Shown here: piece by piece, positions 9,980 to 13,888 of the stretch
How the letters are laid out: each line of letters starts with the position of its first letter
How positions within the stretch are numbered: the first letter of the stretch is position 1
Assembly (NCBI GenBank): GCA_017656145.1
Contig: JACDOI010000011.1
Coordinates: 1-60,477 of the forward strand
Length of the DNA: 60,477 nucleotides
Origin: Bacillota bacterium
GTDB lineage: Bacteria; Bacillota; Limnochordia; Limnochordales; ZCTH02-B6
Reading direction: 5' to 3'
Notes under the pieces: generated by a model
Database searches by the model: none
What the model was told of the DNA's origin: nothing
Seen by the model: the letters and a program-made list of their open reading frames with translations, nothing else
Made by a program: the position numbers and the translations under genes

Positions 9980-10507
9980 TCAGTCGAGGTCGAGTCGTAC
10001 AGGCCCGCTTTTGATCGGGGGATCGGTCGTCAGAACGGCGTACACGTCCACCGGCCCGCGCACCGGATTCCCGAACTCGTCTTGCCCGTTCCAAACCTCG
10101 ACGAACAGAAGCATCTCCCCGGGACGGAACGATCGCTGCTGAACCGCCTGGTGGAAGGCCCGCCTCCGGGACCATCGCCAGATTTCCCGGCCGTCCTGCA
10201 TGATGATGAAGTCGTAGGTCTGGCCGTCGGGGAACGTGACCCCGATTTCTTGTTCCCCGGTAGCCATTGCAGTCAGGACGAGGACGTATGCTCTCTCGCC
10301 GCCCAAGGTGACGGGTCGGACAGAAACCGCGTGGGTAAGGGGCGGCGGGACGCTCGGGCCGGGCTTGGGATCGGTGGCGTGCGTTCCCGCGATGATCAGC
10401 AAAACGCCAATACCTCCCACCAGCCAGGGCCAGCGCCAACAGGGGCGCCCGGGGCTCGAGCCGGCCGGGCTCCGGACGGTGTGTTCGCTGGTCGTGGGGC
10501 TGTTCAA
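9980..10507 (-). CDS. Membrane-anchored BsuPI-like proteinase inhibitor domain protein
   Basis: 175 residues from a TTG start at 10507, chosen because AGGAGG lies 8 bp before it; an upstream ATG at 10543 overlaps the protease gene stop but has no ribosome site in front. After a short Ser/Pro-rich N-terminus there is one membrane segment (about residues 27-41, PWLVGGIGVLLIIAG), then an exported domain with FPDGQTYDFIIMQDGREIWRWS, FHQAV and FRPGEMLLF. These match the BsuPI family (intracellular proteinase inhibitor of B. subtilis). Here the domain is membrane-tethered and outside the cell, directly behind a secreted subtilase gene. A role in restraining that protease is an inference from adjacency; the fold assignment comes from the motif. 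Confidence 0.75.
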   Translation of the reverse strand: MNSPTTSEHTVRSPAGSSPGRPCWRWPWLVGGIGVLLIIAGTHATDPKPGPSVPPPLTHAVSVRPVTLGGERAYVLVLTAMATGEQEIGVTFPDGQTYDFIIMQDGREIWRWSRRRAFHQAVQQRSFRPGEMLLFVEVWNGQDEFGNPVRGPVDVYAVLTTDPPIKSGPVRLDLD

Positions 10508-10539
10508 AACAATCGCCTCCTGTCCGCAGCGCCGGGCCG

Positions 10540-12636
10540 TCATCGGCCGGTTGCCGTTGAAAGAAGCTCGCGGTCTTGAACCGGCAAGGCGTCCCAGATC
10601 GCAAGCGATAGCTGGACGGAAACAGTTCCGTTCTCCGGAACGTCCACCTCGCCGATCGCGGCCAGATCGCCTTCACCCAACAGCCCGTCGCCGGTCGCGT
10701 CGATCCAGGCGAAGGCGGATTGGCGGCCGGCCGCAACGTTTTCAACCCTAGCCACGGGCCGGAGCGGGTCGCCCTGCGGTGATGTCGGGCCCCACACCTG
10801 GCCGCCCGAAGAAACGACTCCCACTCGGGCGTTCATTGGCTCGGCCTGGGTTACCGCCGCGTAGGCGTTGATGAGCCCGTAGCCGTATTGCGAGTCCGGA
10901 CCCGGGGGCCCCAGGTCCTCCGCGGTGTTCCGCAACAGGGTCCGGATTCGATCCGGATCGGTGATGCCGGTGCTGTACATCAGGGCGACGACCCCGGCGA
11001 CGTGGGGCGCCGAGAAGGACGTGCCCTGTTGATACGAGTAGCCGAGACTGCCTTGGACCACGTCGGTGCTCAACACCCCCTCTTGCGATCTAGTCCGGGT
11101 GTCGCCGCCGGGGGCAACCAGCTCCAGCTCCGGCCCGTAGTTGGAGTACCAGGCGAGCTGCTTGTAGCGGTCCACCGCGCCCACCGCGATGACGGCGGGG
11201 TGGCTGGCGGGCATCGTCACCCGGCTTCGGTCATTGCCCACACCGGCCACCATGATGACGCCGCGGCTGGCCGCGTACTCGATCTGCTGGTTGACGAAGT
11301 TGTCGTTGTAGCTGGCGTCCCAGGCGAGGCTCATGTTGATCACGTGGGCACCGTTGTCCACCGCCCAGCGGATTCCCTCGCCCACGGCCGCCACCGTCCC
11401 GCCGGACAGCGAGCTCAACACCCGGACGGGCATGATGGACACCGACCAGTTGATCCCGGCTACGCCCCGGCCGTTGCCGGTCATCGCACCGATGATGCCG
11501 GCCACCATCGTACCGTGGCTCATATCCCGCGCATCGTCGGTGTAGTCGGTCGCGGGCTTGTCATCGGCGAAGTTGCGCCCGGACACGATGGCCGTTGAGT
11601 CAAGGTCGGGATGGTCGGGCCGGATTCCGGTGTCCAGAACAGCCACCACCACCTCGCGGCTGCCCGTCGTCACCCGCCACGCGTCGGGGACGCTGATGAG
11701 CGGCAAGCTCCACTGCCGCGCGTAGTAAGGGTCACCGGGATCGTATGTCAACGCCACCGGGTAAACCCGCTGGTTGGGCTCGACCGCCACGACTCCGGGC
11801 AGCGCAGCCAGCCGGGCTTCCACCGACGGCGACGGGTCCTGCGCCCGGGACTCGACCAGGTAAAAGTTGTCCGCGAGTCGCCGGACCACCTGCACACCGG
11901 CGCCGGACCACATGTCGTTGATCGTTTGAACGGGATACTCATCGGTCAGTTGGACGATCCACTGCCCGGGAATCGGTTCCGGCGACAGACCCGCCGGGGA
12001 GGACCGGCGGGTCGCGACAGGCGACACCCGATCGGAGGGGGCGGAGGCCGGCTTGAGGACCGGCGCCTGGGCGGCGGGCGTATTGACGAGGCGGATTTCC
12101 ACCTCAACGACCGCGTCGCCGTCAGGCAATTCGGGGCTCGGGTCGCCGCCACCGTTTCCGCTTCCATCGCCGGATCCGCCGTTTTCGCCGTTGTTCTCAT
12201 CCCCGTTGCCATTGCCGCCGCCGGGCTCGCCGGGCGACGGTTCGGCCCGGGTCAGAACGACAATGACGGTCGCCAACTGGCCGGGTTCGGCCGCGATACC
12301 CACAGAGCGACTGAGATAGCCGGGAGCCCCCGCGGTCAGCTCAAGGTCGCCCGTTCCTACAGGGAGGTCGCGAAACGCAAACGTACCATCAGGACCGGTT
12401 AAGGCTTCTCGCTGCGCGACCCGCACGGTGGCGCCGGCGATGGGAGCACCTTCGGGGCTTTCTCCGACCACCGTGCCTTGCAGGTCAAACGTGGCGGCGC
12501 TGCTGCCGGGCCACCCGCCGCCGGATCCCGAGCCGAAACAGCCTGTCAGGGCGAGGGCCAAGATCAGCAGTACCGGCACGTGTCGGGTCCAGCCCCGGTC
12601 TGACCCGAAGAAGCGAACGGTCGAACTTATCATCAC
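10540..12636 (-). CDS. Subtilisin-like serine protease, lipoprotein (peptidase S8)
   Basis: About 698 residues. GTG 12636 or ATG 12633 is the likely start, 12-15 bp after AGGAGG. A lipoprotein signal ends in LALALTG-Cys33. Then come a carboxypeptidase-regulatory-like beta domain (about 50-130, IAGATVRVAQREALTGPDGTF), a Gly/Asn linker (about 137-165), a fervidolysin-like propeptide (about 222-293, VQLTDEYPVQTINDM, LPGVVAVEPNQRVYP) and the S8 domain with catalytic Asp335 (AVLDTGIRPDHPD), His374 (MSHGTMVAGI), oxyanion Asn468 and Ser540 (GTSFSAPHVAG). A C-terminal beta domain contains DATGDGLLGEGD, resembling a calcium loop. It should be an active, surface-tethered protease. Followed directly by the inhibitor-like gene; divergent from the Arg-rich pair. 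Confidence 0.92.
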   Translation of the reverse strand: MMISSTVRFFGSDRGWTRHVPVLLILALALTGCFGSGSGGGWPGSSAATFDLQGTVVGESPEGAPIAGATVRVAQREALTGPDGTFAFRDLPVGTGDLELTAGAPGYLSRSVGIAAEPGQLATVIVVLTRAEPSPGEPGGGNGNGDENNGENGGSGDGSGNGGGDPSPELPDGDAVVEVEIRLVNTPAAQAPVLKPASAPSDRVSPVATRRSSPAGLSPEPIPGQWIVQLTDEYPVQTINDMWSGAGVQVVRRLADNFYLVESRAQDPSPSVEARLAALPGVVAVEPNQRVYPVALTYDPGDPYYARQWSLPLISVPDAWRVTTGSREVVVAVLDTGIRPDHPDLDSTAIVSGRNFADDKPATDYTDDARDMSHGTMVAGIIGAMTGNGRGVAGINWSVSIMPVRVLSSLSGGTVAAVGEGIRWAVDNGAHVINMSLAWDASYNDNFVNQQIEYAASRGVIMVAGVGNDRSRVTMPASHPAVIAVGAVDRYKQLAWYSNYGPELELVAPGGDTRTRSQEGVLSTDVVQGSLGYSYQQGTSFSAPHVAGVVALMYSTGITDPDRIRTLLRNTAEDLGPPGPDSQYGYGLINAYAAVTQAEPMNARVGVVSSGGQVWGPTSPQGDPLRPVARVENVAAGRQSAFAWIDATGDGLLGEGDLAAIGEVDVPENGTVSVQLSLAIWDALPVQDRELLSTATGR

Positions 12637-13437: not shown

Positions 13438-13471
13438 ACACCGACGCCAAGATGGAAGGGGGGTGTGGAAT

Positions 13472-13888
13472 ATGGGTTCCATGAAAACCGTGGCGGTGCG
13501 TACGGTAGCCTTGCGGCCCATCGCGGTCAGGTCCGTCGCGGTGCGCCCCATCGCCCTGAGGACGGTGTCGGCTTGCCCGGTGCGGACCGTGGCGGCTCGA
13601 CCTGCATTCGTGCGAACCGTGATGGTACGCCCCACATTCGTGCGGACGATCGCAGTTCGACCCACATTCCTGCGGACCGTGGCGGTTCGACCCGCATTCG
13701 TGCGGACCATCGCAGTTCGACCCACATTCGTGCGAACCGTGTCGGTTCGCCCCATCTCCGTAAGAACCGTGGCCGTCCGCACCGCGTTCGTGCGGCCGAC
13801 TGCGGTGCGGACCATCTTCGTCCGAGCGCCCGTTCGTGTCATTTCCCTGAACAACGGCGTTCGGACCATCGCCACGAGGTTGTGCTGA
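13472..13888 (+). CDS. Val/Arg pentad-repeat protein, unknown function
   Basis: 138 residues made almost entirely of five-residue units, R-[TPS]-x-x-[VL], mostly alternating as RTVAV and RPTFV. There are no Asp or Glu residues at all and Arg recurs nearly every fifth position, so the protein is very basic and at the same time rich in Val, Ile and Phe. Two Cys are visible, one near residue 30 and one as the last residue. The frame was chosen from several open ones because AAGGGGGG stands 8 bp before ATG 13472. I do not recognise the family. Five-residue periodicity could build a beta solenoid or a cationic coat or nucleic-acid-binding fibre. Its neighbour upstream is also Arg-rich. Confidence 0.55.
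   Translation: MGSMKTVAVRTVALRPIAVRSVAVRPIALRTVSACPVRTVAARPAFVRTVMVRPTFVRTIAVRPTFLRTVAVRPAFVRTIAVRPTFVRTVSVRPISVRTVAVRTAFVRPTAVRTIFVRAPVRVISLNNGVRTIATRLC
13580..13819 (+). repeat. Tandem repeat, eight 30-bp units
   Basis: Eight consecutive 30 bp units of the form GTGCGGACCGTGGCGGTTCG-ACCCACATTC, beginning at 13580, 13610, 13640, 13670, 13700, 13730, 13760 and 13790; the central ones are nearly identical and the outer ones decayed. Looser 15 bp units extend upstream to about 13481. The unit encodes RTVAV-RPTFV in the frame of the repeat protein. No spacers separate the copies. Confidence 0.9.

What the first reader, a model, noticed from the sequence alone, without database searches (positions are those of the whole stretch)
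9980..12636. Surface subtilisin lipoprotein encoded next to a membrane-tethered BsuPI-like inhibitor
The S8 protease is a lipoprotein with an intact triad (Asp335, His374, Ser540), an internal propeptide and an added carboxypeptidase-regulatory-like domain. The next gene, same strand, encodes a BsuPI-type domain behind a membrane helix. BsuPI is known as an inhibitor of an intracellular B. subtilis serine protease; here both partners would face outside. A protease-inhibitor module on the cell surface, or in the forespore/mother cell space, would be a new arrangement.
Basis: partly seen in the sequence, partly recalled or inferred. Interest (0 to 1): 0.6.

Follow-up and report, generated by a model that had tools for sequence, protein, structure and literature searches.

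The report
Surface protease with tethered inhibitor-like neighbour
Two neighbouring bacterial genes encode a membrane-anchored protein-cutting enzyme and a partner from a protein family suspected of blocking such enzymes; the same pair recurs in seven bacterial families, which makes an old doubt about that family testable.

Summary
On the minus strand, 12636..10540 encodes a lipoprotein subtilase (lipobox LTGC; CarboxypepD_reg domain; Asp335/His374/Ser540). The next gene, 10507..9980, encodes a BsuPI-domain protein behind one hydrophobic segment; Pfam and a predicted fold (best PDB match 3isy, B. subtilis IPI) confirm it.

Exported BsuPI proteins were already known, but the one paper found on the family states that no complete genome had one next to a subtilisin. 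Here all four related genomes with a readable neighbour have the pair. In a phylum sample plus close relatives, 20 of 159 BsuPI domains lie 0.4-0.9 kb downstream of a subtilase: always same strand and order, seven families, about 0.7 expected by chance. All 20 subtilases are lipoproteins with intact catalytic residues; their partners carry export signals. In this genome each gene is the only one of its family.

Most likely the partner restrains the protease at the cell surface (about 50%); adaptor and substrate roles remain open. Inhibition is not shown; 21 genomes have BsuPI but no detected subtilase; a fused-pair structure prediction gave no confident docking. The forespore idea has no support.

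The parts
10540..12636 (-). Subtilase lipoprotein gene (698 aa from GTG 12636; 697 aa from ATG 12633)
   Evidence: AAGGAGGA ribosome site 11 nt before the GTG
12538..12549 (-). Lipobox LTGC, lipidated Cys33 (predicted)
   Evidence: by pattern
12250..12483 (-). CarboxypepD_reg domain, residues 52-129
   Evidence: PF13620 49.2 bits, cut-off 32.3
11746..11973 (-). Probable propeptide, about residues 222-297
   Evidence: position, and Fervidolysin_NPro-like hits in paired relatives; no own Pfam hit
10876..11658 (-). S8 catalytic domain, residues 327-587; triad codons Asp335 11632-11634, His374 11515-11517, Ser540 11017-11019
   Evidence: PF00082 190.6 bits; genome scan; residues
10567..10839 (-). 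C-terminal beta domain with W-x-D-(x)-G-D motif, about residues 600-690
   Evidence: strands in the model of the G004 homologue; alignment with relatives
10516..10521 (-). Ribosome-binding site AGGAGG of the BsuPI gene
   Evidence: sequence, 8 nt before TTG 10507
9980..10507 (-). BsuPI-domain protein gene, 175 aa (alternative start ATG 10543, 187 aa)
10385..10426 (-). Hydrophobic segment, residues 28-41: membrane anchor or signal peptide
   Evidence: hydropathy scan
10073..10288 (-). BsuPI domain as matched by Pfam (modelled fold spans residues 57-174 of 175)
   Evidence: PF12690 62.9 bits; fold
10145..10156 (-). FHQA, aligned with the wedge loop of IPI that Rigden et al. docked into the subtilisin cleft (IPI 65-68, FTQA)
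   Evidence: alignments; functional role is inference from PMC3901451

Best explanation
A two-gene surface module. The first gene makes a subtilase held on the outer face of the membrane by a lipid. The second, translated directly after it, makes a BsuPI (Ig-like) domain held on the same face by a hydrophobic segment (in relatives by a lipid, or exported by a signal peptide). The likeliest role of the BsuPI protein is to bind the catalytic cleft of the neighbouring subtilase reversibly through its wedge loop, so that active protease close to the membrane is restrained from cutting the cell's own surface proteins. Shown by sequence: gene pair, domains, conserved order, export signals, intact catalytic residues. 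Inferred: topology, cotranscription, binding, inhibition, purpose.
For: Adjacency far above chance with one strand and one order in 20 of 20 cases and seven families. All 20 subtilases have a lipobox and intact catalytic motifs; the partners of all have lipobox, hydrophobic segment or signal peptide. The window's genome has one detected S8 gene and one BsuPI gene, and they are these two, so no intracellular subtilisin is available as a target. BsuPI fold equals that of IPI, an inhibitor of subtilisins in vitro with Ki of order 1e-9 M according to PMC3901451. FxQA of the wedge loop is kept in all four f1 proteins. Co-encoded exported inhibitors are known for other surface proteases (PMC3462683).
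Against: No binding or inhibition data for this pair. 21 of 116 BsuPI genomes tested have no detected S8 gene, two of them single-contig assemblies, so the domain has other roles too. The wedge Phe is Ala or Ser in ten of eleven f64 partners. A pseudo-fusion model of the G004 pair gave no confident docking (pTM 0.65). The subtilase already has a probable propeptide to keep it inactive at first. PMC3901451 itself leaves open whether IPI is an inhibitor or a competing substrate.
Confidence: 0.5

Rival explanations
1. Adaptor or scaffold: the BsuPI protein binds the subtilase away from the active site, or binds its substrates, and so places, stabilises or feeds the enzyme rather than inhibiting it.
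For: BsuPI is Ig-like and occurs in genomes without S8 genes and in multi-domain surface proteins (PMC3901451; Cu_amine_oxidN1 fusions among the pairs). The wedge Phe is not kept in f64. The conserved pairing needs an interaction, not necessarily inhibition.
Against: The founder of the family inhibits subtilisins in vitro (PMC3901451).
Confidence: 0.25
2. Substrate: the BsuPI protein is a surface protein processed or released by the neighbouring subtilase.
For: Casein competes with the inhibition by IPI, and the family was removed from MEROPS because members might be competing substrates (PMC3901451). Long Pro/Ala-rich linkers precede the domain.
Against: The domain itself is a compact predicted fold; substrates are seldom tied so regularly in one order behind their protease.
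Confidence: 0.13
3. Neighbours without a direct relation: two exported proteins that share an operon and regulation but do not touch each other.
For: Both families are common in this phylum; in family f2 of the same order the BsuPI gene and the lipoprotein subtilase lie on different contigs.
Against: 20 pairs against about 0.7 expected, one order and strand only, seven families; the paired subtilase domains do not form one clade (AU p 6e-7), so the pairing was gained, or kept while others lost it, more than once.
Confidence: 0.12

Closest known systems
B. subtilis IPI (BsuPI, PF12690, former MEROPS I22; PDB 3isy)
   Same: Domain family above cut-off and best fold match; wedge loop F-x-Q-A
   Different: Hydrophobic N-terminal segment and long linker; encoded directly behind a lipoprotein subtilase instead of apart from it
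Thermitase / AK.1-type subtilases (S8)
   Same: Catalytic domain: AK.1 protease 162 bits by sequence; thermitase is the top fold match for the G004 homologue
   Different: Lipid anchor, N-terminal CarboxypepD_reg domain and C-terminal beta domain are additional
Bacteroides C10 protease/staphostatin-like inhibitor operons (btp/bti, bfp/bfi; PMC3462683)
   Same: Layout: lipoprotein protease with propeptide, inhibitor-like exported or lipoprotein partner encoded a few bases away on the same strand
   Different: Cysteine protease and staphostatin-like partner, unrelated to S8 and BsuPI; cotranscription was shown there and not here
Staphopain/staphostatin (Staphylococcus) and SpeB/Spi (Streptococcus)
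   Same: Protease and inhibitor genes contiguous (stated in PMC3462683)
   Different: Cysteine proteases; inhibitors act in the cytoplasm

Membership tests
Peptidase S8 (subtilase) | PF00082 above cut-off with Asp/His/Ser triad and oxyanion Asn | tested here: met
   190.6 bits against 21.8; Asp335, His374, Asn468, Ser540
Peptidase S8 (subtilase) | Proteolytic activity | not testable with these tools
   needs the protein
Bacterial lipoprotein | Signal peptide with lipobox L-x-[GA]-C | tested here: met
   LILALALTGC, Cys33; lipidation itself not testable
BsuPI / IPI (PF12690, former I22) | Domain above cut-off | tested here: met
   62.9 bits against 22.9
BsuPI / IPI (PF12690, former I22) | IPI fold (3isy) | tested here: met
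   Foldseek top match, E 5.9e-8, TM 0.72 by target
BsuPI / IPI (PF12690, former I22) | Inhibition of a subtilisin | not testable with these tools
   needs a protease assay; disputed for the founder too (PMC3901451)
BsuPI / IPI (PF12690, former I22) | Intracellular location, as in the family's name | tested here: not met
   predicted exported; PMC3901451 shows this feature does not define the family
Type VII secretion mycosin (TIGR03921) | NCBIfam equivalog cut-off | tested here: not met
   199.3 bits against 278.75
Co-encoded protease-inhibitor modules (staphopain/staphostatin, Btp/Bti) | Adjacent same-strand genes, conserved as a pair | tested here: met
   20 pairs in seven families
Co-encoded protease-inhibitor modules (staphopain/staphostatin, Btp/Bti) | Cotranscription | not testable with these tools
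   32 bp gap with its own ribosome site suggests it
Co-encoded protease-inhibitor modules (staphopain/staphostatin, Btp/Bti) | Partner binds and inhibits the cognate protease | tested here: inconclusive
   fused-pair model pTM 0.65, no confident placement

The most novel reading that the evidence does not exclude
A recurrent class of surface protease-antiprotease operons, so far reported as absent, in which BsuPI is a genuine subtilase inhibitor that works outside the membrane, and the 'intracellular' label of the founding protein is misleading.
Probability: 0.3. Interest if true: 0.65.

Novelty: new variant of a known kind. Interest (0 to 1): 0.5.

Why it matters
The one paper found that treats the BsuPI family left open whether its members are inhibitors at all, and stated that none lies beside a subtilisin gene in a complete genome. 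A recurrent operon gives natural cognate pairs, so the question can be answered with two purified proteins. If inhibition holds, it adds an S8 counterpart to the Bacteroides C10/staphostatin-like pairs: a way for bacteria to keep an anchored surface protease in check.

Tried and rejected
Type VII mycosin: rejected, below the NCBIfam cut-off. BsuPI acting on an intracellular subtilisin here: rejected for this genome, the only S8 gene found is the neighbouring lipoprotein. Forespore/mother-cell setting: the genome has spoIIR, so sporulation is possible, but no sigma-70-like promoter was found and sporulation promoters were not scanned. Single origin of the pair: rejected for the subtilase domain (AU p 6e-7; f1 plus f64 p 0.0045), only weakly for BsuPI (p 0.032; 0.109 without f122); gain and loss cannot be told apart. 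Downstream genes of 22 unpaired or cut-off relatives: no second inhibitor-like family recognised by eye. A genome-contig scan with the subtilase gave only four distant relatives and no named carrier of the pair. Pseudo-complex folding through the in-frame stop of the G004 pair gave no docking.

Full report
What is there. The minus strand carries two adjacent genes. The first (12636 or 12633 to 10540) encodes a 697-698 residue subtilase with a lipoprotein signal (LILALALTGC, Cys33), a CarboxypepD_reg domain at 52-129, a Gly/Asp/Ser-rich linker, a probable propeptide, the S8 domain at 327-587 and a small C-terminal domain. The second gene starts best at TTG 10507, eight bases after AGGAGG and 32 bases after the subtilase stop, and ends at 9980; an alternative ATG at 10543 overlaps the stop as ATGA. 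It encodes 175 residues: a basic N-terminus, one hydrophobic segment, a Pro-rich linker and a BsuPI domain (PF12690, 62.9 bits against a cut-off of 22.9). It converges on rsmE of a dnaK-dnaJ-prmA-rsmE cluster, 24 bases away, so the pair is not part of that operon (those four gene names are my reading of the translations).

Fold. AlphaFold2 with 42 sequences models the BsuPI domain at pLDDT about 97, and the best match among solved structures is 3isy, B. subtilis IPI (E 5.9e-8, TM 0.72 by target length). The catalytic domain of the close homologue from genome G004 matches thermitase and other subtilisins.

Is the pairing real. In the window's family, five genomes are held. Four have BsuPI, and in all four it directly follows the subtilase. 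In the fifth (G001) the contig ends 303 bases after the subtilase stop, but the downstream frame starts with the same kind of basic-plus-hydrophobic N-terminus. In a sample of 398 genomes of the phylum, 125 have BsuPI. Pooling the listed hits with those of the class search gives 159 BsuPI domains in 132 genomes; S8 genes were mapped in the same genomes. Twenty BsuPI domains lie 421-885 bases downstream of an S8 domain, all on the same strand and all in the order subtilase then BsuPI; the next nearest case is 5.6 kb apart. Random placement would give about 0.7 neighbours within 2 kb in any order or strand. The 20 come from seven families (f1 four genomes, f64 eleven, f77, f97, f109, f117, f122 one each). 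Related genomes are not independent, so the number of families is the better guide.

What the pairs share. All 20 subtilases have a lipobox (in G373 with Tyr at -3: YTGC) and intact D, H and S motifs (the Ser motif of G218, missed by the pattern, is GTSLASAH). The partners differ in how they leave the cell: lipobox in f64, hydrophobic segment in f1, signal peptide in the others, with Cu_amine_oxidN1 clearly present in f122 and f97 and at best a trace in f77. In the catalytic-domain tree all paired subtilases fall in one larger group (SH-aLRT 97) together with unpaired, mostly lipoprotein-type relatives, but they do not form one clade (AU p 6e-7). The BsuPI tree also needs at least four changes of the label; a single paired clade is weakly rejected (p 0.032), and not rejected once f122 is left out (p 0.109). 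The groupings f117 with f109 and f77 with f97 occur in both trees, as expected if each pair travelled together. Gain and loss cannot be separated.

What is known. One paper with the Pfam number was found: Rigden et al. 2013, PMC3901451. It reports the IPI structure, notes many BsuPI proteins with signal peptides, one predicted type II membrane protein and SLH-domain architectures, suggests that IPI itself may have an exported form, docks the wedge loop (residues 62-68) into the subtilisin cleft, and leaves open whether IPI is an inhibitor or a competing substrate. It also states that in no completely sequenced genome is the BsuPI gene close to a subtilisin gene. The present data do not fit that statement for a larger and later genome set; one of the pairs (G218) lies on a single-contig genome. 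Protease-inhibitor operons as such are known: staphopain/staphostatin, SpeB/Spi and, closest in layout, the Bacteroides lipoprotein C10 proteases with exported, partly lipoprotein, inhibitor-like partners (PMC3462683).

Mechanism. Inhibition of the neighbouring surface subtilase is the likeliest role because this genome has exactly one detected S8 gene and one BsuPI gene, they are adjacent, they are predicted to be in one compartment, and the founder of the family inhibits subtilisins in vitro. The FxQA part of the wedge is kept in this family. Against it: 21 of 116 BsuPI genomes tested have no detected S8 gene, two of them single-contig assemblies (one search repeats this with the window subtilase, where an empty answer is weak on its own); the wedge Phe is Ala or Ser in ten of eleven f64 partners; and a read-through pseudo-fusion of the G004 pair gave well-folded domains but no confident mutual placement (pLDDT 77.8, pTM 0.65). 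Adaptor and substrate roles therefore stay open.

Verdict. What is new is the recurrent operon. The forespore idea rests on nothing but the presence of spoIIR.

Noticed in passing
window 13463-13888 (repeat array 13512-13795): Degenerate tandem repeat with 15/30/60/90-base periods, reading VRTVAVRP[AT]F-like on the plus frame; no Pfam family above cut-off. Long odd frames lie at the same place beside the pair in L019 and L021.
   Followed up: partly
phylum sample: 21 of 116 genomes with a BsuPI domain have no detected S8 subtilase, including two single-contig assemblies, so BsuPI domains must have roles other than subtilase control.
   Followed up: partly
L022, L023, L024 (family f2) and L067-L069: In f2 of the same order the BsuPI protein, related to the paired ones of f64 and f1, lies beside other genes while the lipoprotein-type subtilase is on another contig: a natural unpaired comparison.
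   Followed up: partly
L067-L083, L104-L116 (unpaired relatives): A broader group of lipoprotein-type subtilases shares a C-terminal domain with a W-x-D-x-N-x-x-G-x-x-D-x-G-D-Y motif that has no clear Pfam name.
   Followed up: no
L079, L080 (genome G402, family f113): One genome (G402) carries seven BsuPI hits, three of them in one 410-residue frame: a multi-BsuPI protein.
   Followed up: no
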